A stretch of DNA of 64,000 nt, taken from the IMG/VR virus record IMGVR_UViG_3300027741_002766, positions 1 to 64,000 of that record; one strand, given 5' to 3'. Made by a program: the position numbers and the translations under genes. Of the stretch, positions 3,353 through 58,449 are shown piece after piece. Each line of letters starts with the position of its first letter. The first letter of the stretch is position 1. The notes under the pieces are model-generated. The model saw nothing but the letters and a program-made list of their open reading frames with translations. It did no database searches and was not told where the DNA came from. Source of the DNA: a virus.

Positions 3353-3958
3353 ATGCCAGCAGTATTTTTGGTCAGCGACACGCATTTTGGTCATGCCGGC
3401 GTGTGTCGCTTTACTCACCCTGACGATCCTGAAGTCAAGTTGCGTCCCTGGACGGATCCTGACGAGATGGATGAGGAAATGATCCGCCGTTGGAACGATC
3501 GAGTACGCCCCAACGACAAGGTGTATCACTTGGGTGATGTTGTGATCAACCGCAAGGCCTTGAAGACTTTGGCACGGTTGAATGGTGACAAAGTATTGAT
3601 CCGCGGTAACCACGACATCTTCCGTGATGATGAATACCGCGAATACTTTCGCGAGTTACGTGCGTACCATGTGATGAACGGACTTATTTTGAGTCACATT
3701 CCTGTACACGAAGCAAGTCTTGGTAGATTTGGGTGCAATATTCACGGACACTTACACGCTAGTCGTGTGAAGAAGGCACGTGGTGTAGATGCTCGTACTG
3801 GCGAAATCTTGTACGGAACCGAAATTGATCCTCGCTATTGGTGTGCTTGTGTCGAGCAAACTGACTTTGCACCCATCTTGTTCGAAGATGTGATCAAACG
3901 CATTACCGCAGAAGGTGGTGTTATAGGATTTAAATCTGGTAACGGACCCACAATGTAG
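3353..3958 (+). CDS. calcineurin-like metallophosphoesterase
   Basis: 201 residues. All metal-binding motifs of the family are in order: DTHFGH near the N-terminus (D9, H11), HLGDVV at about 60, RGNHD at about 85, SHIPVH at about 118 and NIHGHLH at about 131. The metal-coordinating residues are intact, so a di-metal phosphoesterase is expected. Phages carry many such single-domain proteins; substrates could be nucleotides, nucleic acid ends or phosphoproteins and cannot be told here. It is transcribed alone from its own promoter. Confidence 0.9.
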   Translation: MPAVFLVSDTHFGHAGVCRFTHPDDPEVKLRPWTDPDEMDEEMIRRWNDRVRPNDKVYHLGDVVINRKALKTLARLNGDKVLIRGNHDIFRDDEYREYFRELRAYHVMNGLILSHIPVHEASLGRFGCNIHGHLHASRVKKARGVDARTGEILYGTEIDPRYWCACVEQTDFAPILFEDVIKRITAEGGVIGFKSGNGPTM

Positions 3959-3959
3959 A

Positions 3960-3988
3960 TTGATAACGCATAAATAAACCTATACAAT
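3960..3988 (+). promoter_or_regulatory. promoter reading into the structured RNA/tRNA-Glu/tRNA-Asp unit
   Basis: TTGATA (3960-3965), 17 bp spacer, TACAAT (3983-3988). The start point would be near 3995. It also contains CATAAATAA (3969-3977), similar to the T4 late motif. It is the only clear promoter upstream of the large RNA at 4243-4952. Confidence 0.55.
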
Positions 3989-3997
3989 AAGCACAAG

Positions 3998-4120
3998 ATG
4001 AAACATTATTCAAATTATCTACAGACACTAGATCTAGGCACTTGCCTGGCCTTGTGGTCTACGACCGAGAACAATGGCAGTGAACCAGATAACAACAGGG
4101 TCCAGGGAGACAGAGTATAG
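3998..4120 (+). CDS. possible 40-residue leader peptide
   Basis: An ATG within a few bases of the predicted transcript start opens a 40-residue frame (MKHYSNYLQTLDL...) ending at TAG 4118-4120. There is no clear ribosome binding site, so translation would have to be leaderless. Its interest lies in its position: its 3' part covers the 5' arm (4096-4103) of an alternative hairpin upstream of a terminator. It may be a real leader peptide or chance. Confidence 0.25.
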   Translation: MKHYSNYLQTLDLGTCLALWSTTENNGSEPDNNRVQGDRV

Positions 4121-4177
4121 TTCAACAACATACTCAAACTTCAAAGGACCCTGGATTAAAAACCCAGGGTTTTTTGT
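4096..4177 (+). terminator. terminator with a competing upstream hairpin (attenuator-like)
   Basis: ACCCTGG (4148-4154) pairs with CCAGGGT (4164-4170) and is followed by TTTTTG, a classical intrinsic terminator. The same GGACCCTG (4146-4153) is a perfect partner of CAGGGTCC (4096-4103), so the two hairpins exclude each other. This is the layout of a transcription attenuator controlling entry into the downstream RNA gene. Seen directly: the complementarity. Inferred: regulation. Confidence 0.55.
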
Positions 4178-4192
4178 TTTTAGGAGAAAAAT

Positions 4193-4242: not shown

Positions 4243-4952
4243 GTTGTCAAAATACAACACCCAGCATTGACCAATAAACCAGTTGATGCTACAATAGAAC
4301 TTAACAAAGCAACAAAGTCGATCGAGACAGTTGCAAGGATCTTTAAAAATTACTTTCATATGGCCCTGGCAACAGGGACCATATGAGAACACATTAGGGT
4401 TACCAGACCCGTTAGAGGCATTGGTAGAAGTGAACTGGCACCGGCGGGTGTCCACTTACTACCAGTCATGAAGCCGGCTCTCACCGTGAGGTGATCCAGA
4501 AAAGCGGCGGATCGTCTGGCAGTAATGACCGTGTACAGCGCAGAGTCGCAATCTGTGAAAAATCAGTACACAATGGTTCCCAAATGTTTTTTCATATGGT
4601 GGGTTCATCTAGAGGCCTAGGATAGTGCCCTTTCACGGCATTCACACCGGTTCGAATCCGGTACCCACTGCCATATGGAAGTATTCTTGGCGTAAGTCAA
4701 AGCAGGAGAAGAAACCTAGCATCTGCAGATGCGAAAGTTTCAGTGGTGCAAGTCCCCTCCTAGGCCTGCCGTTGAGAGTGCTTCTATATGGTAGATGTTA
4801 TAGTCAAGCATCAATAAAGGTATCGTGAGAGGACGCTTTCACTATGCGGGCCCAACTGGCGAGGAACGGGTCCTGATATAACTGCTAGTCGCTATGGAAC
4901 GGAAGCCCCGGACTCCTAAATAGGCATCTCTTGGTGCTTGACTATAACATTT
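4243..4952 (+). ncRNA. large ornate structured RNA of about 710 nt enclosing tRNA-Glu
   Basis: This stretch has no credible gene but is dense with helices. Examples: CATATGG/CCATATG with an inner CCCTG-GCAA-CAGGG GNRA hairpin (4358-4385); TGGTAG/CTACCA enclosing AAGTG/CACTT and GGCACC/GGTGTC (4422-4464); TCACC-GTGA-GGTGA (4481-4494); GTGTAC/GTACAC (about 4531-4570). After tRNA-Glu, a 16-bp helix joins 4671-4686 to 4776-4791 and encloses further stems. A 20-bp helix then joins 4793-4812 to 4933-4952 and ends exactly at the first base of tRNA-Asp. Size, phage context, tRNA neighbours and an embedded tRNA recall the GOLLD and ROOL giant RNAs. I cannot confirm the family by eye. Confidence 0.75.
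4598..4673 (+). tRNA. tRNA-Glu (TTC)
   Basis: A 76-nt cloverleaf. Acceptor GGTGGGT pairs with ACCCACT (G1-U72 wobble), the D-arm is TCATCTAGAGGCCTAGGA as in bacterial tRNA-Glu, the anticodon loop is CTTTCAC, the T-arm is CCGGTTCGAATCCGG, then GCCA. It is embedded in the large structured RNA: its CCA bases are also the first bases of the next 16-bp helix. Flanking CATATGG and CCATATG could extend the acceptor stem in the precursor. Confidence 0.95.
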
Positions 4953-5027
4953 GGTCCGATAGTATATCGGTTAGTATTTCGCACTGTCACTGCGAGGAGA
5001 CGGGTTCGATTCCCGTTCGGACCGCCA
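4953..5027 (+). tRNA. tRNA-Asp (GTC)
   Basis: A 75-nt cloverleaf with acceptor GGTCCGA/TTCGGACC, anticodon loop CTGTCAC, T-arm CGGGTTCGATTCCCG and encoded CCA. It begins at the base following the long terminal helix of the structured RNA, so maturation of the RNA 3' end by host RNase P at this tRNA is plausible. Confidence 0.95.
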
Positions 5028-6278: not shown

Positions 6279-6284
6279 AAACGT

Positions 6285-6440
6285 TCCAGCGTCACTGGAT
6301 ACTCTGGTCCCAGAGGATGAGAAGTGTGATGACACACACGGGCGGTACTGTTCAAGCCTTAAACAGCGTTGGCAATACGATAACGGTCCCTGTCGAGGAG
6401 CGGGTGGAGGGTGTAAGTGATGAATAGACTAGTTAGGGCA
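6285..6440 (+). other. tRNA spacer with possible structured RNA
   Basis: A gene-free stretch between tRNA-Cys and the next promoter. Several short hairpins can be drawn, including CTCTGG/CCAGAG (about 6302-6316), CTGTT/AACAG and CGTT/AACG. Two overlapping frames of 65-70 codons cross it from inside tRNA-Cys but have no ribosome binding site. It may be a small structured RNA, a decayed tRNA or simply leader sequence. Confidence 0.3.
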
Positions 6441-6442
6441 AC

Positions 6443-6469
6443 TTGACGAAATTTCTGATACACTATAAT
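6443..6469 (+). promoter_or_regulatory. probable promoter of tRNA-fMet and tRNA-Thr
   Basis: TTGACG (6443-6448) and TATAAT (6464-6469) with a short 15 bp spacer. The -35 hexamer is the same as upstream of the first tRNA gene. Confidence 0.5.
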
Positions 6470-6501
6470 TACCGCCGAGGGACGTCAGAGCACCTTATAG
6501 C

Positions 6502-8206: not shown

Positions 8207-8983
8207 ATGATATCAAACTCTAAAATTATTATTGCTGGTGACAGTTGGGGTCTTGGAGAATGGTCTGGACTCGAATTAGGATCCGGTGGGTCGATAAATC
8301 ATACAGGTATGGCACAATATTTTACAGATTTTCAATACACAGTTGTAAATCTATCCAAAGGTGGTTCATCCAATTTAGAATCCATTGAAAGATTAAAACA
8401 CTATAACATAAGCGACAACGACATAGTGTTATTCATCATGACCGATCCTCTCAGAGATTTAGGCGCATTTAAACTTTCAAAGCAAAATAATGATAAAGAG
8501 AACTTAAAAAAAATTACTGAAAAAATCACCAAAGCACTTGTTGATGCTCAAGGAGTGTATCCACTGTTATGCAAGTTAATGCATAACTTATTTGATGAAC
8601 TAAATCAAATTGGACATCCTATCAACTTGATTGGTGGTTTATGCAATATCAATACCGACATTAGTTCTCAATACAACAATTTAACAACACTCATACCAAG
8701 TTGGATTAATATTTTAGTAGGGCAAATGCCCGAGTATGAACATACAATAAATAAAAATTTTGTTATTACAACTGGGTCATTGCTTCAACATATAAATCTA
8801 TCAGAATTTGATTCCAGATTGGCTGAATTAATTATTAACGACTTACATGATATTGAAAAAAATTTTTTAGTTTTTAGAGAGGACATATTTCATCCTGATG
8901 GTGTGCATCCTAATAGACACGGACATCGCATTGCGTTTGATAAAATTGTTGAGTCTCTCAAGATTGACAACAAAATCAAATAA
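8207..8983 (+). CDS. SGNH/GDSL-like hydrolase
   Basis: 258 residues, AT-rich. Block I is IIIAGDSWGLGEW (Ser in GDSW, residues 11-14), a Gly/Asn block NLSKGGSSNLES fits blocks II/III, and the C-terminal DGVHPNRHGH supplies the catalytic Asp and His. The family includes esterases and O-acetyl(transfer)ases acting on lipids or glycans. No signal peptide, so cytoplasmic action on sugar intermediates or virion components is likely. It shares the fold class, but little sequence, with the SGNH genes of the 28-38 kb island. Confidence 0.75.
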   Translation: MISNSKIIIAGDSWGLGEWSGLELGSGGSINHTGMAQYFTDFQYTVVNLSKGGSSNLESIERLKHYNISDNDIVLFIMTDPLRDLGAFKLSKQNNDKENLKKITEKITKALVDAQGVYPLLCKLMHNLFDELNQIGHPINLIGGLCNINTDISSQYNNLTTLIPSWINILVGQMPEYEHTINKNFVITTGSLLQHINLSEFDSRLAELIINDLHDIEKNFLVFREDIFHPDGVHPNRHGHRIAFDKIVESLKIDNKIK

Positions 8984-8992
8984 ATATACAAT
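8964..8992 (+). promoter_or_regulatory. promoter of the tmRNA gene
   Basis: TTGACA (8964-8969), 17 bp spacer, TACAAT (8987-8992), overlapping the end of the SGNH gene. The start point would be about 9000, matching the beginning of the permuted tmRNA. Confidence 0.7.
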
Positions 8993-8999
8993 ATAAAGA

Positions 9000-9287
9000 A
9001 CAGCGTAAACTGTTATCAAGAAAAGGATTCAAGACGGCGGGGCAGTGCCGCCCAGGTCCACCAAAAGTATAATCGATATGCCCATAGCATATAGAGACAT
9101 AAGAAACGGGATTATACTTCTGATGGGCCTGACACAGGATCGATTGGGTCAAGAGTAGAGATAATGGCGCTCGGTAGGCGATGACCGTAAATCAAGCAAA
9201 ACTAGTAAATGCAAACGATAGCGTTTATTCTTTGGCAGCCTAAACACTGCCTAGGGTAGGAAAATACCTCGTAACAGAAATCACCAG
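9000..9287 (+). ncRNA. ssrA: tmRNA, circularly permuted (two-piece) type
   Basis: The acceptor piece comes first: T-stem GGCGG/CCGCC (9036-9052), then CAGGTCC, A and an encoded CCA ending at 9063. An intervening segment, held by AGTATAATC/GATTATACT, is followed by the 5' piece GGGCCTGACACAGGATCGA from 9125. GGGCCTG (9125-9131) pairs with CAGGTCC (9053-9059), and TTGGGTC (9144-9150) pairs with GATTCAA (9026-9032), forming the acceptor and P2 helices. The tag reading frame GCA AAC GAT ... GCA GCC TAA (9211-9243) encodes ANDSVYSLAA, ending in the LAA degradation signal. It rescues stalled ribosomes. The T-loop (GGCAGTG) is not the standard TTCRANY. Confidence 0.92.
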
Positions 9288-9310
9288 AACCCGCTTCGGC
9301 GGGTTTCTCT
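9288..9310 (+). terminator. intrinsic terminator of tmRNA
   Basis: AACCCGC-TTCG-GCGGGTT (9288-9305) with the stable UUCG tetraloop, then TCTCTT. It closes the tmRNA transcript. Confidence 0.85.
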
Positions 9311-45921: not shown

Positions 45922-48900
45922 TTAGCCTCTAAAAAACTCGGCCGCTGGTGTGGTAGAGTCTTGCAAAGGTGTGCCAGTTGTGGGATAGACTCCAGCACCG
46001 TACCAGCCCAGTCCTTGACGAACTTGTATCGACACTTGATAGCCCTGAGCAGGTGCTGTGTCAAATTCCACAGTTACCGGATTGTCAACGGTCACAGTGT
46101 AACCACTGGTTTGTAACAGTCCGCCCACATATACCAACACACATTTCTGGGCAAAACTCAGTCCTGGTGAACTAAGATCAACATCTGCTGTGAACACTGT
46201 GGTTGCACCATCTGCCAAGGTGTTAGATCCCACGTAGTGATCTTGGTACAACACCGGTGCTAGATTGTCGCGATTTAGATTGTAAACCACAGCATCAGTT
46301 ACGTGTGCGGCTGCGGCCGTTCCGGCAGTACCTCTCAGGAGACTGCTCACAGTATTGGCGATCAAATCTCGTTCACGATACATGATGCGCTCACCGTTTA
46401 CAGTCAACACACCCCATATATTGTTGGCCAAGTCTGGTTCAGCAAGAGCACCAGCATTGTCCACATACGCTACGTCATCATCAATTGCAAGATCTTGAGT
46501 TAGTATGGTAGTAGTGGCTGTGGTCATTCTGTAAGAGGCCTGTACTCCACGCATGTCTTGGAAGATACGTAATTCAATACCAGGATTGGGCTCGTTCTCA
46601 AGGATAACAATCACAGCACCGTTGGCAGGCGCAGTATTAAAAGTGACTGATGATCCAGCAAAAGTATAAGTGCTTGCGGCAACCACAATATTATTAATCG
46701 CCACCTCTACATCAGTAGCACCTGCAGGAACAGCATATGGTCCAGTGGTAGCGCCATTACCGGTATAATAAGTTATTTCACGTGAGTATACCCGCAAGTC
46801 CAAGGTGTCAAATATTGCACCCGGTACTAGTTCTTCTGGTGCATGACTTTCATAAGGGCCCACAAACTCTCCGCCCACAACATTGATGTCGGTGGCTCGG
46901 GTTCCTAGGTAAGGATCCAAGAAAGAACTTTCATATGTGGCATCCAGGATGCCTAGATCGTATGTGGGCTGGCCATCAGGACCATAAGAAATATTATCAA
47001 ACGGGCTGACATCAAAGTTACCTACGTCAAATCCAGTGTTTTGTGCAAAAGAGGGAGCAGCCACTTGTACTCCAGGATAGTCAACTCCGTCAATCAATAG
47101 TGGCAGGTCCAACCCTGGTTCGTTAGGACCTGGTACATAGAAGCCCATGGTGCGATCAACGCCACTCAATGAACTGGCTGCCACTGTGGTCCAGTTGGCA
47201 GGATCAAATGTGGATGACGTCACAGTTGTGTTGGCTGACCAGACACGATTTACGTAACGTACCTGTTTACCAGTTGTGTAAGTAACATTAGGCTCCCAAG
47301 GCACAATAGTAGTTGCGTATTGATAGCGATCATACTTGATGGTGGTGTTGATACTACGCACCAATTTGTTGCCCATCACAGCCACAATCTGCCCACCTGT
47401 GCCATTGCCACCTGTGATTGTGACTGTGGCAGTGGTAGTATATCCCGATCCTGGATCGGTAATGATCACTTGATTGATATGTCCTGCACTATTCACTGTG
47501 GCCGTCATCTGGGCCGGAGTGGTACAAACACCCGAGACTGTGAGTTGTGGTGCCACAGTATATCCTGAGCCACCGTCCACAATGATCACATCTTGTATGC
47601 TGAGAGCATAGTTTTCGAACCAAAAACTATAAGGTTGTGTTTGCCACAGTGTGCTTGAAGGTGCAACATCACTATAGATACTGGCGTGTCCGGTACCTTG
47701 TGCAGTGCTTAGATCGTAGGGAGTCAAAATAGGACTCATGTACTGATTGGGCACTTGTGAGTTGTTGTAGAACGCTGGCAAATCAAAGTCGGCCATACTA
47801 CCTTGATACGCATCAAAACCATTGTAGATCAAATTAAAAGCCCGGATACTCACATGATAAGGTTTGACTTCTTTGATATAATTCAACACAAAGTCTTGAT
47901 TGTCCTGTTGATAGGTTTGATATGGCAGCAGTTGTCTAACCTTGTGATCAACATCAATCAAACTGGTCATGTTCAACCATCCGGGTGCTTCAAATTCGCT
48001 GAGTACAAAATTAAACATCAAGATCAAGGCACGATTGCGTTCAATCAATAGTTCATCAATCAACAGTTGTTCATTGATGGCCTGTATGATTTTGCGTGTT
48101 TCGGTCACAGGTTCCTGGTCAAAGTGCTGTGCATCAAAAACTTCAACATCAAATCCAAAACGTCCCAGTGCGTAATCCCACAGTTCAGTCCGGAACTGTA
48201 TGGTACCATCTTGTAGACCCACGCGATCCCATCCAACATCTGTTCTTAGATAGATTTCAAATTTACCCTGGCTGTTGGCAGTGACCTTGACACTACTGCC
48301 CACAGGCGCCTGAGCCACACTCAGCGTGGCAAGATCAGCATAGTTGGCCACCTGGGCAATGATCTTGGTACTGGAATTGTATCCTGGGCGATACCAGGTC
48401 ACATATTGCCAGTAATTTCTAGTGTCATAGTTTTGCACACGAGTCAAGAACAAGGTATCAAAAGTTTTGGCGGCTGTCACAGCATAAATGGTCCACAAAC
48501 CATTTTGAGTACTGTCGCTGGCCACTAGGTATAGATAGCCCACTGGCACCTGGGCTAGGTCTTGATAACTCAATTGTTCAATATTGGCCACACGTTTGTT
48601 CCAGGCACCCAACCCGGCTGCTGGCTCAGGATCACTGCTGTTCAACAGTGCAAAGTTGCGAATTTCCGATATGGGATACTGCAACAACACAGCATTCACA
48701 TACTCTAGATAGTTTTGTAAAGCCAAGAATCTATCAGCAAACATGCTCTGGCGCGGACGGAATTGCACACCGTAGCGCAGGGCTGGACTCAGTGTAGGGT
48801 CAGGCACTAGATTGCCCTGTGGATCTGCGCCGCAAAAACTGTCTTGAAATTTCTGATAGAGATTGGCGGGCAGGAAGGCTTCGGCACGGTCTTGTGGTAG

Positions 48901-51900
48901 AAGATCATACTGCACATGCACATTGTCGTCTGTGAGTTGTCTATCAAATTCAATACTGAGCACTGTGTCTTGGGCACTGATCAAGTCAGTGGCATTGTAG
49001 ATGGCAGTGGCACTGGCGCTGACAAAGGCCACATAAGGAATACCGCTGGCACGGGGGTCAGCGATATATCTGGCTATGCCAGTGGGACTAAGAGTTTTTC
49101 CTGCTGTGCTATTGATTGTGGTAATATTTTTTACCCAGAAATAATATGTAGTTCCAAAAACTCCTGTTGTGGTGAGACCAGTGGTCACGCTGTAATTGGT
49201 AGTGGTTCTAGGTGTGCCAGGACCTGTGTAGTTGCCTGGTGGCACAGAACTTGCAGTCCACTGATAAACATCCACACTACTACCTGGGAATATTTGACCC
49301 CATCTGCGAGCCGCGTATACAATGTCATCTTGATTGGGATCAATGAATCTCACGGAATTGGTATCCCACCAGATTTGTCCTACCTGTCCGACAGCCCAGA
49401 TTCGTCCATTGTTGTTTTTGGCACCCACGTTGTAGGCTGCAGGATCCACAGCACCAGTGTAGTCAATATTTTGTTGCGCGGCACCTAGAATTTTGCCTTG
49501 TAATGGGTCAAAGAAATCAAAGAATGCAGTCTTGGCTCCAGTGATGCGATCATATGAGAACACTCCGTTGATCAAGGCCACATCTACCACTGGTTGTTGA
49601 ACATGTGTGACTCGCCAGGCAGGAGAAAGATCTGGATTGTTGAAAATGGACACTTGACCTGCATTTGAGTTGCCAGTAGGACTGCCTGCCAACAGTATAC
49701 CATTGGTATAGTCAACTGATGCGCCATATTGATACAACTGCTGAATAGATTGATCGTATACCTGTTGACCAAATGCAAATTTGCCAGGATTGCTGACTGA
49801 ACTGTTGGTGCTGGCAAAATAATCATATGTGTATACAGCGCCACTTTGTACCAATGGCCCACTGAACGTTGTGGTTTTGCTGTCAAAGTATGTGTTGCCA
49901 CCGTCAAACGTGTTGGGGCGATACAGGTTGCCACGTGGGGCACCCACAGTAAGAGTCAACGCACTGGTATCTATTTTCACAGCACTGCCAAAGGCAGCAT
50001 AGGCCGCTGGATAGGGACTCTCAATGGTTTGAGTGTAAACAAAAGTTTCAAATCCCATGCTGGAGAAAATGTTTCCAACTAGGCCAGGTAGCACAGTCAA
50101 TTTATTACCTGCTACCGCGGCATCCAAGTTCTTGACACTTATTGTAAGCAGACCAAATGTCTGTGTTCCTGCGACCCCAGCATAGGCCATCACATTGGGC
50201 ACTGTGCTAGAATTGATATTGTAGGCCAACTGTGCGGCCCAACTACTGGGTTGCCAATATGTGGTATCGCCCAGCGATGTGCCTGTTGGTACTGCTCTGA
50301 CGGCCACATATAGACTTGAACTGTTGATAACTATGGTTCCGACTGTGTAGGCCGAACCAACTAACCAGGCAGCAGGTGCGGTCAAAGCCACTTCCTGGTT
50401 GTTGATTCTGATAGTATCGCCTGGAGTCAATGTGGCATTGATAGTTGATGTTGTGATACCATACACACGACTTTGATTTACTTGACGTTCTACCAAGCCT
50501 GCGCCCGGTAACACGCTGCCATCCTGAGGTGCTCCCACATACAGGCTACAGTTGTAACGACAGAGGTCCACTGCCTGTCCGTAGTTGGCGCTGGAAGTAG
50601 GAGCATCGGATCCAATCTGTTGAATCTGATTGAATGTGTTGACTTCGACTACCAGGATGTCTCCTACCGCAGCCGGAGTGGTCAAGGTGATCTGATTGCT
50701 TCCAGTCACTGTGTATTGGCCATCAGGGTTTCCCGCAGTGTTGATCAGGAATTGATTGTTCAATGAAACTGATGTAGGAGCAACCAATGAAGCATCCGTT
50801 TGATATACAGTTTGTGTGGCACTGGTCACAATAAATTGTTGCACTGATCTATCATAGACGTAAACCGATCCTGCATAAGTTACACCATTGTAAGTGTTGT
50901 TGGAGCAACCAATCATGACTTGTCTGCCGTCGGTGCCGCAACTGACTGACTGACCAAATCTTGCATCGGCTGCAAGTCCGCCTGGTGCAAGTGATGTGAC
51001 ATAGTTATAATAACTTTGAGTTGTTACACCGATTGTGCCAGTTGGAGCCGCTGTGAATGTTATATCTCTAGTGGAATTGCTGAATGTATAATCAATTGTG
51101 GGTCTTTGAACAATTCCGTTTACTGTTACATTGAAACTGTAAATGTTTAGAGCAGAGTACAAATATTCATTCAACGAAAACACCTGAGTGATGCCATTGC
51201 CTGTGAATGTTTGAGCCACACGACGACCAATCTTCAGTTGAAGATCTTTGACCGGAGTTGAATTCAAAACCACACTGTCTGCAGTCACAGTGTAGTCAGT
51301 TGAATAAGTCAACAGTTGATTGTTTAGCACCACAAATAGTTGTTGATATGCTCCAGAATCAATCACTATGTTGTCGCTGTAGTTGTAGGAATAGGAAACT
51401 CCGTCAGTGATATAAGTTTCCAGTTGAGTTTCAACTGGCACCAATCCGTAAGCAAACACTTGATTGATTCCTGGTGCACCAATGTACATCCAGTTTTCAT
51501 CTGCGCTGATAGCAATGCTGGTACCAAATTCACTGGCTGAATTTATATAACTGGCATTGGGCACTGTCAACAGATTTGAAATAGCAAAACTTGGGCTGTT
51601 AGGGAATCTGTAGATCACAGCCACATAGCCAGAGTTAGCACTTGAGTCGGCACCAAGGCTGGCTGGGGCACCCACTGCGCCCCAGGTTTGATTGCCCACA
51701 CTGACTGCGGTGCCAAGGCCATACACTCCTACTGCATTGGATTGTAACAAACTGTTTTGTGTGAACGGATTGGTTGATGTTCTCACATAGGTATAAAGTG
51801 CACCAGCACCAGAATTGTAGCCTGGGCTACCTACAAATGCAAACACATTGTCTCGGGCCTGTGCGACACCAGCGCCAAATTTATTGCTGGCCACTGACGG

Positions 51901-54900
51901 AACCACGGTGAGTTGTCCACTGGTATGGAATACCTCTTGTTTTTGCACAACCTCCCACAAACCTGCACCGTTGTTGTCGATCCAGGCACGATCTCCTGGT
52001 ATCAAGTCATTGGCATACGGCAAGGTAATAATGTCACTGCCCTGAGCCACTCGCTGACTTTGTAGAGTAAATGCTGTTCCTGTTCCTGTAGCAACGATTT
52101 GATCTTGTTGCAAGAATGAGAATGACACAGTGACTTGATTGATACCAGGCACATTCAGCACAGTGTATACACCATCTGCACCTGATCCAAAGTACTTGAG
52201 CAACAGTATGTTGTCTGCAACCAAGCCGTGTGCTCGATTAAATCGGATTACCGACGTACCATTCAAGTTGCTGTTGATTTGCGTGACTTGCGCAGGTATC
52301 TGGGCAGTTCTGTAAATTCCCCAATCATAGTCATTGATCTTGGCCACCCATATTATGGTACCCACATTCACGTTGTTGAGTTCGGCAGCCAAACTAGCAG
52401 TGTTGTTAATGTTGAACACAGTGATGTCAACATCGTCTACATTGACATATCCTGCTGACGGCAATGCTGTGTCAGTTTTCTTGACCAAGGTTGTGGTCAA
52501 AATATCGGGTGTGGTTATTCGATAACTTTCAGCCCAGAGATTATCAACATAAACGGTTTGTTGTGCAAGACTTGGTTCGTCAGGTATGGTCACTTGAATC
52601 AAACTGGGATTTGAAGTTAGCAATGCTTCGTTCAATCTCAATTCATAAAAACTCTTGTTGGCATTGGCCCCGTACGTGCCGCGTTGTATGGCCCAGTTTT
52701 CGTAGATATTGTATTCAGATACTCCGCGACCAAGATCAGCAAAAGTAAAAATTTCTGCGGCACGAACAGTGCCCTTGGTGCCAAGAAATTGCCTATAGAG
52801 ATTTACTTGACTGGTGCTGTCAAGATTCAGTGCCACCATGTACTCTCTGGGCTTGAACCCAATCAAGTTGTAGGCAAACAGATCTTGGTTGATTTCAAGA
52901 TTGGCCTGATACACATCATAACTGTTGGCCAACTGATCACTCTTGTTGGACAAATTGGGCAATAGGCCTTGTTGTATCTTGGTATAGTCACTGCGTGTCC
53001 AGTAGTTGAAGTTGAATTCTGGGCTGGGTTGCACAATATCAACTGCACTGTAGTAGAAGTTTTTGTACAACACAATCTCGCCGCGAGCATACTTGCGCAA
53101 GGGATCCCACTCTTTCACATTGTTTTGATTGAGTATAAATCCAGGAGCGTTCAATTGACCGTTCCAATTTTGTGAGGTTGAACCTATCAGTCGCACTCGA
53201 TTTTGTCTAGCACCTGTAGCAGGATAATAGATCAAATCCGCAAAGATACTTTGATTGTCCAACACTACCATGTTTTCGTATGACGTAAACTTGATGTGAA
53301 AATAGTTTATAGTATCGGCTGTTAAACTTTTCAATGTAAATGTATTGTCCAGTCTTTCCACCACAAGATCTCTTGTGGCAAAAGGAGTACGTTCTGCATT
53401 GAGTACCATGTTTTCTGTGGTCTGTAGTGCAATACTGTCCACAATGGCTCCTGGGCGCTCTACTATGACCTGTGTGGCTCCAGGATTCAAATTGATAATA
53501 CTGCCTTCGGCCCAGCCTTGACCGCTCCAGTACAAGAATTCGCTGACCATCTGATTCCAGTCCAGCATGTAACCGTTTTCCAGTTGGGTAAACAACATGC
53601 CTTGCTGTTGCAATAATGCACCATAACTCAACAAGAAATCGGCTACCAAGGTTCTGTTGGTAAACACATAGCCATAAGGAACTTGTACCACCCGGTTGGT
53701 GTAGGTCACAGGCACACGCACTTCATATCCACCGGCATTAATAGTGCTTAACACTCCATTGACACGACTGACCAAGATATTAAAGTAAGGTTGTGTGGTG
53801 CTGTACCCATACACTGCCCAGCCATTGGCAGTTGATTGTACAATTATACTGCTGTAGGTCAACTGATCAAATGGCACATTCTTGTAGAACAACAAGTTGT
53901 AACTTTCGTCGGGCAACAACAAACTCGAATTTAGACTGTTGGGACTGGATTTTTCAGTGTAGATCTGCAGGAGATTTTTGCCCGAAAATGCTGCCATTCG
54001 GTAGCACAGTCGCACATCAAGATTTTTAAGATCTGCTGTGAGAGTGTCAGTTGAGTTGATTCCGCTGATTCGATTGTAGTCCACAATCCAGTCAATGTAA
54101 CTGGCCTTGCTGACTCCATTGCCATACACTTCAATGCCATTGGCATCCAGTCTATAACGACCATTATAAAGATATTGTCCCAGTTCTGGATCATAGCGAT
54201 ACAAATCACGATCAGCAAACAAACTAAAGAATTCAGCAGGACGTGTGAGTGCCAACAAGCGCATGATAGCAAAGGGGTATGCACTACTGGTTCGCCAGGC
54301 ATTTTCGACAGGAGCATCATCGCCTACTGCCCAATTTCTTTGGAAATTGTTGCTGTTGAAATTGCCCACCATGACTTCAATTGGAGCCAGTAACAGGCCT
54401 TCACTTGAGGAAGGAATCACTTGTGTCAGTTGAGGTCTAGCATACTGAGGCAACACATAAGGTGCAATCGGATCTCGAACTAGACCAGCAGCCAAGTCGT
54501 CCCACAGCACCAAGTTGCCTGAGGTGTAGGGAGCAGGACCATACTCGGCTTCCCACCATGAGGGCATTACTGTAAATCCCAACATCTCCCAAGGTCTTGT
54601 GTTGGGACTTGTGGTATCATAAAAGTAGTTGTAGATACCGCGCCAGGCGCCCACAGCCAATGGTTCATTGTTGTTGAGTTTGTTACCGGCTGTGCTGTAG
54701 TTCCAGGTAAATGCATTGGCAGCCCGGTAATCTTGAGATTTGTAATCCAATTTGTTCCAGCCCACCCAGGTCAAGAAGTCTTGACTTTCTATTTGGGTGA
54801 TTTCTCCCAGTGTATAATCTGTTGTACGGAACTGTCCTGGCACAACTTCTGTTGCTGTGAGCGGCACAGGGTTGCCATCCAGTTTCAAGTTGTTGTAGAT

Positions 54901-57900
54901 TCTGGTTTCAAATTCCAACAACAACTGATCTCGATAGTCATCAAACGCCACAGTGATAGAACCATCGTGTCCTCGAATCACTCGTCTAGGCTCAATGTAG
55001 GTTGTGTCCAAATATATCTCTGGAACAAATGCTGGATACAGTCCCAATTTGGTGGGTGTGTTGGGTATGAATGTACCGTAGGTTTCGGAGTATTCTTGTA
55101 TGACCACTTGATCGCCCACTACCAGTGGTAGCAACACAGTGAGTGTGGGTGCATCTGTTGAAACTACATATTCAATACCTCTTGTGAGCAAACGCCCATT
55201 CAAGTATACCAGCAGTCCAAGATAGTTGGCTGAGGTGTAGTTGTAGACCTGCGTGGTGTCAAATCTCTGCGTGGTAATTGCAGTGACCACTGTGGTTGAT
55301 TCAGTGTAGGTATTACTGGCCGGTATCATGTCCGACCAATAGAAAGGATTGGAACTGGTACGACCCGCAATGAGATCAGTAATGATTGTGGTCAATATTT
55401 CAGACACCGTCATGTTCATATAGTCGCCAGTGACAGCGGCATTCAGCAACTGTGCTTTGTATTTTTCGTATTCTCTTGAATTGTATTCCAGACTGGCAAA
55501 TATATTATAATCCGCGCTACGCAGAAAGTAACCAGCCATGGTCATTGGTGCGCTTTGTTGTAAAATGTTCAAGCCAAATGGCACAATATTGCCAAGGTCA
55601 CGCGAGTTGTTGGCACCATTGATTTTTCCCGTTAGACCCACAAGATTTTGTCCTATCGAATCATAATGACTTCTAATAGTGCCCAAGGTAAGATTGTTGG
55701 CATTTTGATTCAACGGATTATTTTCAAGATTCACAGGCACTTGATAAAACGCCACTGCACTCACTTGGTTGCTCAAGACCAAGACCTCAATCACTTGCCC
55801 TGGTACAATCACTGTGTTGGCAGGAAATGTGATGGTTGTGGTATTATCGCTGGTTACATAGGTATATGAGCCCGGGTCTTGGAACGTGCTGTCGACATAG
55901 ACTTTGACTGTTGGAATGGTAGTCACCGGCAAGGCAGCCACATCCAACAACAATGGTGTGTTGGCCGCATAAGTGAAACTAAACTGTTGATAGATTTTGC
56001 TCTTGACTGCGGCAGTTTGCCAACCAATTTCTCGTTGGTAAACTGTACGGTCAGCATATTGTCTTACAAAACCTGTACTGACATTTTTTGTATAACTTAC
56101 ATTGTCCTTGACATAAAGAAATGTATCTGCATAAAGATTGTTGTCAAACACAATATCGCCAATGTTATTGATACTTAGGTATTGCAGAGGAAAGCCCAAT
56201 ACTGTGTCATTTGCGCCCGGACCAACTGCATAACTAAACAATTTGGATCCTGCAAATGTACTACTAGGGTATGCCACAGGGTTGCTTAGACTATAACCAT
56301 TGCTGTCATAGACGTCAAATAAAGGTGCTTGATTCACTCCTGTTTTTTGTTGTGCTTGAACCCACTGTGATCCATCGTAATAAAAACTTATGCCTTGCAA
56401 TGTGTTGCCGCTGAGACTGACCACTGTTTGATCAACCAAGACATCAGCATCGCTTGCTGGTACTAGATCAATAACTGGAGTATCACCTTCCACCAAGGTA
56501 ACAAAATTGACCACATAGATTTTATCTCTTACATTGGGATCTGTGTCTTTGGCAAAAATAACTCGGGTGCCATTTATGAAATTGTAACCATCCACCCCAT
56601 ATCCCACAGTTCCATTGACAGTGCTAAAGGCATCGGTTGTGACAAAATCAAGTATGTCCACAGGTTGTTTGCCCTGTGTACCCATTTGATACAGTCGTGT
56701 GCCACCGCGGAATTCCAAGATAGGACGCCGTGCTCTGAAAGCATTGTCCAGTACAGGGGTGGTATTGTTGTATGTGGCCGAGGCTGTGATCACATCCACA
56801 TGGAACCAACGGTTACTGCGTGTCCAGGCATTGAGGTCTGGACTATCTAATGCTATGGTTAGATAATCTGGCACCAGGGGTTGATTTAGTTCAGCATCAA
56901 AGTTGGTTGAATCAAAGGATGTTGAATCAAACGGTATTGTTGCGCTTTTGGTATATGTCTCCGGAGTGACATAATTGGTCACTGGCAGCAGTTGAATAGC
57001 AGTACCAACTCCAGCCACGTAGTAGTCACCATTGGCATAACTGGCCGGCACCACAGGTGCAAGAAACTGCACCTTGAGATTGTTGGTAAACACCACGCCA
57101 TTGGGACTGGTATAATTTTTCTTGCCCAGGATATCAGTTGCCACATTAATCACCGTGCTACTGACCTGATCAATCAGTCGGATTTGACCAAAAATATCTG
57201 GATTTGTTCCATCCTGATACCACAGTACATCTTTGGCTGCTGTGAGTAATGGAATCTCTGCAAAATAGCCGTCAGCATCACGATACCACGATGTGCTGGC
57301 CCATTGTGTACCAAACAGCACAGTGAATTTGTTTAGGTTAGGACAAGGTCTTTGAACACTAAGTTGTAGAATTGGCTGGCCATTGTTGTCATATTGATAA
57401 GTGATCAGCCACACGCTGTAACGTGTGTCAGGATCTGTGATTGGCACAGTCTGATCAAACACTAAACTATCAAAACTGCCTGGAAGACCATTGTTGGCAG
57501 ATGCCTGCTCTAAAGGATCAAATTGCGAAGTTATCAACCAACCACCATCCTGTGCATCGGCGATTTGATTGGTGAATACCACTGTGCGATTGTTGAGACT
57601 TGTGATGCCATCAATGCCACCGTACTCGGCCAAGAAGTCCGACAGATACACATTGTTGATTTGGTCAAATTGTAGATTGGTCAACAAATCTACTGTGCCG
57701 ATGCTGTTGAGATCGTAATAGAACTGCTGAGCATTTTTAAATGGCACATCAAAAGAAACAGTACCAAGGTCTTCACCATTGTTGGTCACTCCCAGCACAT
57801 CTCTACTGGAGATGTTGGGAGCATAAGGAAGTCGACCATTCACGCCCGGATCTGACTGTATCCAGAAATTATTGCCTGTTTGACTCACGTCGAATGTGTA

Positions 57901-58449
57901 ATTGCCGCCACGCACCAGAGTGATCACAGGATTGTCACCGGGTATGGTACTGAATTTATAGGCTGTGCTGGTTCGAGTGACTGTGAAGTTCTCGGTCAAG
58001 GGAATGGCCGTGGCATAAACATTCACAGCATTTGGTCCGCCAGGCAACCAGTAGTATTGACTGTAGTTTACAAATTTGTCAAAATTAACAAACGGATCCC
58101 AGGTATAGTATTCACTGGTATAAAGCCTATCACTGTTGTTGACAACCGCGCCTTGCACTGCCAAGGCATCTGTGATACCAGGATAGGTAATGGCATCTTT
58201 TATTTCGTTGGTATCTGGCTTGAGACTGATGACACCTGGCTCCAACTGATAGTTGGCTCGAGTGGCTGTGGGCTCCAGCACATAGTAGTCATTGGGATTG
58301 ACGCCGGGTCCGACTCTGCGACCCACATAGCCCTGTGTTTTCTTGAATGCAGGTTCCTGAACCAATTGATCCAGTGTGGCATTCAAAAATTGCTTGTTGG
58401 GAGTGGTCTGAAATATATCAGGTAAAAAATCAACAGTGCGGATGGCCAT
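45922..58449 (-). CDS. giant virion structural protein (4175 residues)
   Basis: A 12.5 kb uninterrupted frame, a fifth of the window. It starts MAIRTVDFLPDIFQTTPNKQ, with the YYWLPGGPNAV region I recall from very large structural proteins beside gp6 in marine T4-like phages. About residues 2100-2900 hold several FG-GAP-like repeats (FGTSIAISADENWMYIGAP, FGSAVKIDTSALTLTVGAP, FGQSVSCGTDGRQVMIGC). YTGNGATTGPYAVPAGATDV-type beta modules recur in the middle and near the C-terminus. It is probably a baseplate-attached fibre or adhesin. Its start overlaps the gp6 stop by one base. Confidence 0.88.
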   Translation of the reverse strand: MAIRTVDFLPDIFQTTPNKQFLNATLDQLVQEPAFKKTQGYVGRRVGPGVNPNDYYVLEPTATRANYQLEPGVISLKPDTNEIKDAITYPGITDALAVQGAVVNNSDRLYTSEYYTWDPFVNFDKFVNYSQYYWLPGGPNAVNVYATAIPLTENFTVTRTSTAYKFSTIPGDNPVITLVRGGNYTFDVSQTGNNFWIQSDPGVNGRLPYAPNISSRDVLGVTNNGEDLGTVSFDVPFKNAQQFYYDLNSIGTVDLLTNLQFDQINNVYLSDFLAEYGGIDGITSLNNRTVVFTNQIADAQDGGWLITSQFDPLEQASANNGLPGSFDSLVFDQTVPITDPDTRYSVWLITYQYDNNGQPILQLSVQRPCPNLNKFTVLFGTQWASTSWYRDADGYFAEIPLLTAAKDVLWYQDGTNPDIFGQIRLIDQVSSTVINVATDILGKKNYTSPNGVVFTNNLKVQFLAPVVPASYANGDYYVAGVGTAIQLLPVTNYVTPETYTKSATIPFDSTSFDSTNFDAELNQPLVPDYLTIALDSPDLNAWTRSNRWFHVDVITASATYNNTTPVLDNAFRARRPILEFRGGTRLYQMGTQGKQPVDILDFVTTDAFSTVNGTVGYGVDGYNFINGTRVIFAKDTDPNVRDKIYVVNFVTLVEGDTPVIDLVPASDADVLVDQTVVSLSGNTLQGISFYYDGSQWVQAQQKTGVNQAPLFDVYDSNGYSLSNPVAYPSSTFAGSKLFSYAVGPGANDTVLGFPLQYLSINNIGDIVFDNNLYADTFLYVKDNVSYTKNVSTGFVRQYADRTVYQREIGWQTAAVKSKIYQQFSFTYAANTPLLLDVAALPVTTIPTVKVYVDSTFQDPGSYTYVTSDNTTTITFPANTVIVPGQVIEVLVLSNQVSAVAFYQVPVNLENNPLNQNANNLTLGTIRSHYDSIGQNLVGLTGKINGANNSRDLGNIVPFGLNILQQSAPMTMAGYFLRSADYNIFASLEYNSREYEKYKAQLLNAAVTGDYMNMTVSEILTTIITDLIAGRTSSNPFYWSDMIPASNTYTESTTVVTAITTQRFDTTQVYNYTSANYLGLLVYLNGRLLTRGIEYVVSTDAPTLTVLLPLVVGDQVVIQEYSETYGTFIPNTPTKLGLYPAFVPEIYLDTTYIEPRRVIRGHDGSITVAFDDYRDQLLLEFETRIYNNLKLDGNPVPLTATEVVPGQFRTTDYTLGEITQIESQDFLTWVGWNKLDYKSQDYRAANAFTWNYSTAGNKLNNNEPLAVGAWRGIYNYFYDTTSPNTRPWEMLGFTVMPSWWEAEYGPAPYTSGNLVLWDDLAAGLVRDPIAPYVLPQYARPQLTQVIPSSSEGLLLAPIEVMVGNFNSNNFQRNWAVGDDAPVENAWRTSSAYPFAIMRLLALTRPAEFFSLFADRDLYRYDPELGQYLYNGRYRLDANGIEVYGNGVSKASYIDWIVDYNRISGINSTDTLTADLKNLDVRLCYRMAAFSGKNLLQIYTEKSSPNSLNSSLLLPDESYNLLFYKNVPFDQLTYSSIIVQSTANGWAVYGYSTTQPYFNILVSRVNGVLSTINAGGYEVRVPVTYTNRVVQVPYGYVFTNRTLVADFLLSYGALLQQQGMLFTQLENGYMLDWNQMVSEFLYWSGQGWAEGSIINLNPGATQVIVERPGAIVDSIALQTTENMVLNAERTPFATRDLVVERLDNTFTLKSLTADTINYFHIKFTSYENMVVLDNQSIFADLIYYPATGARQNRVRLIGSTSQNWNGQLNAPGFILNQNNVKEWDPLRKYARGEIVLYKNFYYSAVDIVQPSPEFNFNYWTRSDYTKIQQGLLPNLSNKSDQLANSYDVYQANLEINQDLFAYNLIGFKPREYMVALNLDSTSQVNLYRQFLGTKGTVRAAEIFTFADLGRGVSEYNIYENWAIQRGTYGANANKSFYELRLNEALLTSNPSLIQVTIPDEPSLAQQTVYVDNLWAESYRITTPDILTTTLVKKTDTALPSAGYVNVDDVDITVFNINNTASLAAELNNVNVGTIIWVAKINDYDWGIYRTAQIPAQVTQINSNLNGTSVIRFNRAHGLVADNILLLKYFGSGADGVYTVLNVPGINQVTVSFSFLQQDQIVATGTGTAFTLQSQRVAQGSDIITLPYANDLIPGDRAWIDNNGAGLWEVVQKQEVFHTSGQLTVVPSVASNKFGAGVAQARDNVFAFVGSPGYNSGAGALYTYVRTSTNPFTQNSLLQSNAVGVYGLGTAVSVGNQTWGAVGAPASLGADSSANSGYVAVIYRFPNSPSFAISNLLTVPNASYINSASEFGTSIAISADENWMYIGAPGINQVFAYGLVPVETQLETYITDGVSYSYNYSDNIVIDSGAYQQLFVVLNNQLLTYSTDYTVTADSVVLNSTPVKDLQLKIGRRVAQTFTGNGITQVFSLNEYLYSALNIYSFNVTVNGIVQRPTIDYTFSNSTRDITFTAAPTGTIGVTTQSYYNYVTSLAPGGLAADARFGQSVSCGTDGRQVMIGCSNNTYNGVTYAGSVYVYDRSVQQFIVTSATQTVYQTDASLVAPTSVSLNNQFLINTAGNPDGQYTVTGSNQITLTTPAAVGDILVVEVNTFNQIQQIGSDAPTSSANYGQAVDLCRYNCSLYVGAPQDGSVLPGAGLVERQVNQSRVYGITTSTINATLTPGDTIRINNQEVALTAPAAWLVGSAYTVGTIVINSSSLYVAVRAVPTGTSLGDTTYWQPSSWAAQLAYNINSSTVPNVMAYAGVAGTQTFGLLTISVKNLDAAVAGNKLTVLPGLVGNIFSSMGFETFVYTQTIESPYPAAYAAFGSAVKIDTSALTLTVGAPRGNLYRPNTFDGGNTYFDSKTTTFSGPLVQSGAVYTYDYFASTNSSVSNPGKFAFGQQVYDQSIQQLYQYGASVDYTNGILLAGSPTGNSNAGQVSIFNNPDLSPAWRVTHVQQPVVDVALINGVFSYDRITGAKTAFFDFFDPLQGKILGAAQQNIDYTGAVDPAAYNVGAKNNNGRIWAVGQVGQIWWDTNSVRFIDPNQDDIVYAARRWGQIFPGSSVDVYQWTASSVPPGNYTGPGTPRTTTNYSVTTGLTTTGVFGTTYYFWVKNITTINSTAGKTLSPTGIARYIADPRASGIPYVAFVSASATAIYNATDLISAQDTVLSIEFDRQLTDDNVHVQYDLLPQDRAEAFLPANLYQKFQDSFCGADPQGNLVPDPTLSPALRYGVQFRPRQSMFADRFLALQNYLEYVNAVLLQYPISEIRNFALLNSSDPEPAAGLGAWNKRVANIEQLSYQDLAQVPVGYLYLVASDSTQNGLWTIYAVTAAKTFDTLFLTRVQNYDTRNYWQYVTWYRPGYNSSTKIIAQVANYADLATLSVAQAPVGSSVKVTANSQGKFEIYLRTDVGWDRVGLQDGTIQFRTELWDYALGRFGFDVEVFDAQHFDQEPVTETRKIIQAINEQLLIDELLIERNRALILMFNFVLSEFEAPGWLNMTSLIDVDHKVRQLLPYQTYQQDNQDFVLNYIKEVKPYHVSIRAFNLIYNGFDAYQGSMADFDLPAFYNNSQVPNQYMSPILTPYDLSTAQGTGHASIYSDVAPSSTLWQTQPYSFWFENYALSIQDVIIVDGGSGYTVAPQLTVSGVCTTPAQMTATVNSAGHINQVIITDPGSGYTTTATVTITGGNGTGGQIVAVMGNKLVRSINTTIKYDRYQYATTIVPWEPNVTYTTGKQVRYVNRVWSANTTVTSSTFDPANWTTVAASSLSGVDRTMGFYVPGPNEPGLDLPLLIDGVDYPGVQVAAPSFAQNTGFDVGNFDVSPFDNISYGPDGQPTYDLGILDATYESSFLDPYLGTRATDINVVGGEFVGPYESHAPEELVPGAIFDTLDLRVYSREITYYTGNGATTGPYAVPAGATDVEVAINNIVVAASTYTFAGSSVTFNTAPANGAVIVILENEPNPGIELRIFQDMRGVQASYRMTTATTTILTQDLAIDDDVAYVDNAGALAEPDLANNIWGVLTVNGERIMYRERDLIANTVSSLLRGTAGTAAAAHVTDAVVYNLNRDNLAPVLYQDHYVGSNTLADGATTVFTADVDLSSPGLSFAQKCVLVYVGGLLQTSGYTVTVDNPVTVEFDTAPAQGYQVSIQVRQGLGWYGAGVYPTTGTPLQDSTTPAAEFFRG

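What the first reader, a model, noticed from the sequence alone, without database searches (positions are those of the whole stretch)
4243..4952. A giant ornate RNA folded around tRNA-Glu and ending at tRNA-Asp
About 710 nt without a protein gene can be folded into many long, mostly perfect helices, several with GNRA tetraloops. A 16-bp helix (4671-4686/4776-4791) and a 20-bp helix (4793-4812/4933-4952) are far beyond chance, and the second stops exactly one base before tRNA-Asp. A complete tRNA-Glu is embedded in it. Size, phage setting and embedded tRNA are known features of GOLLD (and of tRNA neighbourhood for ROOL) RNAs, which assemble into RNA-only multimers. It is either a new GOLLD/ROOL member or a new class.
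Basis: partly seen in the sequence, partly recalled or inferred. Interest (0 to 1): 0.9.

Follow-up and report, generated by a model that had tools for sequence, protein, structure and literature searches.

The report
New structured RNAs in phage tRNA operon
The supposed giant RNA is really the front of a virus-encoded operon laid out like a ribosomal RNA operon, holding a tRNA and two previously undescribed, evolutionarily conserved structured RNA families (plus a probable third) that occur in many environmental phages and whose job is unknown.

Summary
The fold is real (shuffle z -9.4) and both long helices exist. It is not one giant RNA, and not GOLLD or ROOL (no Rfam match even at E<=10). 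Homologues show separate modules: a sigma70-type promoter and rrn-like boxB/boxA leader (4267-4353); RNA e1 (4378-4600); tRNA-Glu; RNA e2 (4671-4791); RNA e3 (4793-4952); tRNA-Asp. In other phages the modules recur in other orders, separately, or not at all. e3 is a new ~150-nt family: 36 distinct sequences, 97.9% of pair cells paired (about 38% when slid), 30 of 40 pairs with compensatory changes, a covarying pseudoknot. It has one copy per phage record, lies in tRNA arrays, and was not found in 84,980 bacterial/archaeal genomes (exact pattern) or 50,697 phage records (blastn). e1 is a second covarying family (30 sequences); e2 has few, close homologues. Closing helices commonly pair the upstream tRNA's own 3' NCCA (23 of 28 adjacent tRNA-Glu/e3 cases), with covariation at the discriminator base. 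Most likely: a phage stable-RNA operon organised like pre-rRNA (antitermination leader, closing helices), releasing tRNAs and trans-acting ncRNAs of unknown target. Structure is strongly supported; expression, processing and function are inferred.

The parts
4267..4295 (+). sigma70-type promoter TTGACC-17-TACAAT ahead of the array
   Evidence: Sequence; equivalent TTGACN-17-TATAAT promoters ahead of the leader in many homologues.
4309..4334 (+). boxB-like hairpin GCAAC...GTTGC upstream of boxA
   Evidence: Sequence; same hairpin-then-boxA order as the rrn leader, an order described in PMC10250234.
4337..4353 (+). rrn-type boxA GGATCTTTAAAAATTAC
   Evidence: 12/17 to E. coli rrnC boxA (shuffle p about 0.013); homologues reach 17/17 (L323); 42 boxA-like sites on the tRNA strand vs 2 on the other in 65 loci.
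4357..4385 (+). hairpin CATATGG-CCCTGGCAACAGGG-ACCATATG; its 3' arm can instead pair with the end of e1 (alternative pairing that recurs in homologues)
   Evidence: Sequence, inverted repeat I3, homologue sequences.
4378..4600 (+). e1: new structured RNA family, ~220 nt, closing helix P1 4378-4399/4579-4600, P2 4403-4408/4514-4519, conserved GGTTACC, CATGAA and GTAATG (4522-4527)
   Evidence: 30-33 distinct homologues; P2 perfect in 23/30 sequences vs 3.8% in cross-sequence controls; P1 87.6% paired vs 31-49% slid, 12/20 pairs with both-side changes.
4598..4673 (+). tRNA-Glu (UUC); its CCA (4671-4673) is paired in the closing helix of e2
4671..4791 (+). e2: structured element with 16-bp closing helix (4671-4686/4776-4791) that includes the CCA of tRNA-Glu
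   Evidence: 83-85% identical copies in L232, L307, L285/L248, placed after tRNA-Lys there; absent in L029.
4793..4952 (+). e3: new structured RNA family; P1 4793-4812/4933-4952, P2 4825-4831/4836-4842 (GACG loop), P3 4848-4853/4868-4873, pseudoknot 4859-4862/4889-4892
   Evidence: 36-sequence alignment A2: 97.9% of cells paired, 30/40 pairs with compensatory change, pseudoknot 100% paired; model R1 gives 44 hits in each of two sets of loci.
4953..5027 (+). tRNA-Asp (GUC) directly after e3

Best explanation
The region is the front of a phage stable-RNA operon organised like a pre-rRNA operon. A sigma70-type promoter and a boxB/boxA leader recruit the host Nus antitermination complex, so that a long untranslated array of tRNAs and ncRNAs is transcribed past Rho. 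The first products are e1, tRNA-Glu, e2, e3 and then tRNA-Asp. Each ncRNA is closed by a 16-27-bp helix, analogous to the leader-trailer helices of pre-16S and pre-23S rRNA. This helix commonly pairs the 3' NCCA of the tRNA in front, so the precursor folds as tRNA/closing-helix/ncRNA units. Nucleases (RNase III on the helix, RNase P on the following tRNA, exonucleases to the CCA) would then free the tRNAs and the ncRNAs. e1 and e3 are separate single-copy ncRNA genes that most likely act in trans during infection; their partner is unknown. Shown: e1 and e3 are conserved covarying RNAs, modular, viral and tied to tRNA arrays; the boxA-like leader recurs; NCCA pairing recurs. Inferred: antitermination, processing and action in trans.
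For: Covariation of e3 with pseudoknot and of e1. Modularity. All 81 e3 loci tabulated have tRNAs on the same strand, in most the next tRNA starts 3-10 nt downstream. One copy per record in 28 of 32 virus records, with one extra partial hit at a record end. e3 pattern: 0 hits in 84,980 species genomes vs 111 stretches in IMG/VR. boxA up to 17/17 identical to E. coli, 26-32 nt before tRNA-Glu in many loci, 42 vs 2 strand bias. NCCA paired in 23 of 28 adjacent cases with discriminator covariation. Other tRNAs in these arrays are only a few nt apart, so such elements are not needed as spacers. boxA consensus GYTCTTTAANA: PMC5725501. Leader-trailer helix >17 bp needed for active 30S, boxA recruits antitermination factors: PMC10250234.
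Against: No transcript data. The window's own boxA is a weaker match (GATCTTTAAAA, 10/11 to the published consensus), and many loci lack a recognisable boxA near e3. e4, another ncRNA in the array, shows no long closing helix next to tRNA ends. RNase III cleavage is unproven. e3 can lie up to 15 tRNAs after the nearest boxA, so the link between leader and e3 is not strict. e2 has too few and too similar homologues for a covariation test.
Confidence: 0.6

Rival explanations
1. e1, e2 and e3 are cis-acting parts of the precursor (spacers, processing or antitermination signals in the manner of HK022 put RNA) that help the tRNA array to be transcribed or cut, and have no function once released.
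For: They lie only in tRNA arrays, close to the leader in many loci; the closing helix pairs the upstream CCA; boxA leader nearby.
Against: Single copy per record although arrays hold up to ~29 tRNAs; most tRNAs are separated by a few nt without any such element; e3 can lie many tRNAs downstream of boxA; long invariant unpaired core segments and a conserved pseudoknot exceed what a spacer needs.
Confidence: 0.25
2. One giant RNA: e1, tRNA-Glu, e2 and e3 act together as a single GOLLD/ROOL-like particle.
For: e1 and e3 are often neighbours, with tRNA-Glu beside them; phage and tRNA-island setting as for GOLLD/ROOL (PMC12286853).
Against: Modules occur separately, up to 1.8 kb apart, in different order or alone; no Rfam match.
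Confidence: 0.08
3. Self-cleaving or self-splicing ribozymes or mobile introns inserted between tRNAs.
For: Invariant unpaired core in e3; a GIY-YIG-like ORF lies beside or inside the related element e4 in L083; X-X'-X alternative pairing at e1 ends.
Against: No match to group I/II introns or known ribozymes at E<=10, apart from a chance-level twister-sister match outside e1 and e3; neighbours are intact tRNAs, not split genes; single copy at varied sites.
Confidence: 0.07

Closest known systems
GOLLD RNA
   Same: Large structured RNA of phages, near tRNA islands, sometimes with tRNA in the linker (PMC12286853).
   Different: No Rfam match; here separate elements of ~220, ~120 and ~150 nt instead of one RNA that often exceeds 800 nt; different conserved sequences.
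ROOL RNA
   Same: Phage/prophage, near tRNA islands, multiple pseudoknots (PMC12286853).
   Different: No Rfam match, much smaller elements, found only in viral contigs here.
Bacterial rrn operon leader and leader-trailer helices (E. coli rrnC: boxB-boxA-16S-tRNA-Glu-23S-5S-tRNA-Asp-tRNA-Trp)
   Same: Promoter, hairpin, boxA, structured RNA closed by a long helix, tRNA-Glu(UUC), structured RNA closed by a long helix, tRNA-Asp, later tRNA-Trp.
   Different: e1 and e3 do not match rRNA; tRNA order differs in most homologues, so the order match may be coincidence; Nus binding untested.
HK022 put RNA / lambda nut
   Same: Phage RNA near the 5' end of a transcript that acts on RNA polymerase (general knowledge).
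   Different: put is a short two-hairpin RNA (general knowledge); e1/e3 are larger and not strictly promoter-proximal; not compared by sequence here.

Membership tests
GOLLD | Match to the Rfam covariance model | tested here: not met
   No match at gathering threshold or E<=10.
GOLLD | One large RNA with conserved 3' region and variable 5' region | tested here: not met
   Modules e1, e2, e3 separate and reorder in relatives.
GOLLD | Phage or prophage tRNA island | tested here: met
GOLLD | Forms an RNA-only nanocage | not testable with these tools
   Needs cryo-EM or native gels.
ROOL | Match to the Rfam covariance model | tested here: not met
rrn-type antitermination leader | boxA consensus GYTCTTTAANA after a promoter | tested here: met
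   Many homologues match fully; the window itself 10/11.
rrn-type antitermination leader | boxB hairpin before boxA | tested here: inconclusive
   Present in the window (4309-4334); conservation not scored across all loci.
rrn-type antitermination leader | NusB/S10 binding and Rho resistance | not testable with these tools
   Experiment needed.
pre-rRNA leader-trailer architecture | Long (>17 bp) helix closing the RNA | tested here: met
   20 bp for e3, about 20-27 bp for most e1, 16 bp for e2; a few e1 (L029 type) have a shorter P1.
Group I/II introns, known ribozymes | Rfam model match | tested here: not met

The most novel reading that the evidence does not exclude
A widespread group of environmental phages carries a mimic of a ribosomal RNA operon: host Nus factors are recruited by an rrn boxA to make, next to tRNA-Glu, a set of new single-copy trans-acting structured RNAs (e1, e3, e4 and others) whose folding and release depend on closing helices that sequester the 3' end of the preceding tRNA.
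Probability: 0.4. Interest if true: 0.88.

Novelty: new variant of a known kind. Interest (0 to 1): 0.74.

Why it matters
Structured phage RNAs such as GOLLD and ROOL can be abundant but are functionally mysterious. Here are at least two new families with firm covariation, small enough for structural and in vitro work, tied to a recognisable transcription signal and to one tRNA. A phage tRNA/ncRNA operon using the host rRNA antitermination signal would explain how long untranslated phage tRNA arrays escape Rho, and makes phage takeover of stable-RNA synthesis testable.

Tried and rejected
GOLLD/ROOL membership: rejected by cmscan at E<=10 on the window and on diverged homologues. Single giant RNA: rejected by modularity. 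Coding region: rejected. Named phages as sources: blastn found only tRNA matches or chance-level hits. Two collection scans used a wrong gap length (14-18 instead of 18-21), so their zero counts mean nothing. A resemblance of e4 (ATAACGGTCC...TGTCGGG) to a stretch of 23S rRNA was seen by eye from memory only; there was no Rfam LSU match, so it was not used. No covariance model was built for e1 (variable arms); an nhmmer profile was used instead.

Full report
Observation. The window is the first 64 kb of a 108,737-base virus record. Between a metallophosphoesterase gene (3353-3958; Pfam Metallophos) and a small ORF from 5045 lie tRNA-Glu(UUC) 4598-4673 and tRNA-Asp(GUC) 4953-5027. The stretch 4243-4952 folds far better than shuffles (z -9.4). 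The first starts on the CCA of tRNA-Glu; the second ends at the base before tRNA-Asp.

Not a known family. cmscan against Rfam 15 gives only tRNAs here at the gathering threshold. At E<=10 it gives only chance-level extra matches on the window and on diverged homologues. GOLLD, ROOL, introns and ribozymes are therefore not supported.

Modules. Relatives were fetched through the metallophosphoesterase and by exact motif scans of IMG/VR. Blastn shows the 710 nt breaking into pieces. L037 keeps e1-tRNA-Glu-(diverged e2)-e3-tRNA-Asp. L029 has e1-tRNA-Glu-e3-tRNA-Asp with e2 missing. L083 has e1 and tRNA-Glu, and e3 1.8 kb further on, before tRNA-Met. L232, L285 and L307 have e2 after tRNA-Lys. In L351, L337, L306, L313, L325, L253, L336, L322 and L340 e1 lies directly before e3 or within a few tens of nt of it. 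So the 'giant RNA' is at least three independent RNA elements.

e3. An alignment of 36 distinct sequences gives 39 RNAalifold pairs, 28 with compensatory changes. With a pseudoknot that I read from the alignment (GCCG/CGGC, GCGA/TCGC, GCCA/TGGC), 97.9% of cells are paired against 37-42% when the partner strand is slid by 1-3 columns. 30 of 40 pairs show both-side changes, and the pseudoknot is 100% paired with two swapping pairs. Cells count sequences, not independent events, and the structure was derived from this alignment, but the size of the effect is decisive. A covariance model gives 44 hits in each of two sets of loci. Of 32 virus records searched whole, 28 have a hit; each has one, except one record with an extra partial hit at its end. 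In the 81 loci tabulated, the flanking tRNAs are on the same strand; the downstream tRNA usually starts 3-10 nt away, and the upstream one is most often tRNA-Glu. An exact e3 pattern found 111 stretches in viral contigs and none in 84,980 bacterial and archaeal species genomes. Blastn with three e3 variants found no e3 in 50,697 phage records.

e1. Thirty aligned homologues share GGTTACC, CC..(G)TAGG, CATGAA/CACGAA and GTAATG, with strongly variable arms between. P2 (CCAGAC/GTCTGG, CCTACA/TGTAGG, CCTAGT/ACTAGG, CCAATA/TATTGG) is perfect in 23 of 30 sequences, against 3.8% when strands from different sequences are combined. P1 is paired in 87.6% of cells vs 31-49% slid. No frame is open throughout in any homologue.

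e2. Other loci carry 83-85% identical copies, starting at a tRNA 3' end (Glu in the window, Lys elsewhere). With so few and similar sequences covariation cannot be judged; its status as a family rests on conservation plus the closing helix.

CCA pairing. In 28 loci where a tRNA abuts e3 it is annotated tRNA-Glu each time in the distinct cases printed, and in 23 the closing helix contains the complete CCA. The partner of base 73 follows it: ACCA/TGGT in most, GCCA/TGGC in L301 and L320. e1 does the same where it follows a tRNA (L351, L337, L366, L313, L325; sequences), as does e2 in the window. Many of these loci are related, so 23 of 28 is not 23 independent events.

Leader. The region starts with TTGACC-17-TACAAT (4267-4295), a hairpin (4309-4334) and GGATCTTTAAAAATTAC (4337-4353). 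The E. coli rrnC leader has a hairpin then TGCTCTTTAACAATTTA. In homologues the motif reaches 17/17 and sits about 26-32 nt before tRNA-Glu, or about 46-57 nt before the e1 alignment region. In 65 loci there are 42 such motifs on the tRNA strand and 2 on the other. The published consensus is GYTCTTTAANA (PMC5725501). In E. coli, boxA recruits the Nus complex and a leader-trailer helix longer than 17 bp is critical for active 30S formation (PMC10250234). The gene order of the window (leader, RNA, tRNA-Glu, RNA, tRNA-Asp, later tRNA-Trp) parallels rrnC, but tRNA order varies among the relatives, so I treat this as suggestive only.

Mechanism. The best reading is a phage stable-RNA operon with rrn-type antitermination and pre-rRNA-like closing helices that separate ncRNAs from tRNAs. 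Single copy number, mobility within the array, viral restriction and an invariant unpaired core argue for trans-acting ncRNAs rather than spacers, because neighbouring tRNAs in the same arrays are only a few nt apart. The target is unknown. Which host factor cuts the helices, and whether the RNAs are stable, cannot be decided from sequence.

Novelty. The literature search gave no description of these families or of boxA leaders on phage tRNA arrays. The library lacks most subscription journals, so this is not proof of absence. As a kind, structured phage RNAs near tRNA islands are known; these families and this architecture appear new.

Noticed in passing
window 6280-6501 (before tRNA-Met 6502): e4: another conserved structured element (~220 nt) in the same tRNA array; 18 homologues aligned, 16 of 37 RNAalifold pairs with compensatory changes; an apparent extra helix GGTCCCT/AGGGAC, CCTCTCT/AGAGAGG, TTCTTTCT/AGAAAGAA covaries by eye. 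No Rfam match.
   Followed up: partly
L083 6460-6990: ORF that looks by eye like a GIY-YIG homing endonuclease sits just before or inside e4, suggesting an intron-like or targeted insertion.
   Followed up: no
window 8950-9310: Phage-encoded permuted (two-piece, betaproteobacterial-type) tmRNA, Rfam RF04321 and RF01850; the tag reads ANDSVYSLAA by eye. Not found by ARAGORN.
   Followed up: partly
window 3960-4180; L083 7500-7665; L037 and L029 upstream of the array: Conserved promoter, short ORF (MKHYSNYLQTLDLG...) and terminator-like GGACCCTGG...CCAGGGTTTTTT unit, just before the array in the window.
   Followed up: no
L083 7695-7840; L037 and L029 before tRNA-Leu: Possible further structured element AAATGGGCGGCCT..GGATGG....ATCCGAGCGTAT.. 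ending in a long hairpin, in the arrays of three phages.
   Followed up: no
window 4357-4385 and 4591-4600: Strand X' (CCATATG) can pair either with X before it or X after e1; the X-X'-X triplet is kept in most leader-adjacent e1 copies and lost together in L029-type phages.
   Followed up: partly
window 45922-58449 (-): A 4,175-aa ORF, unusually large for a phage protein.
   Followed up: no
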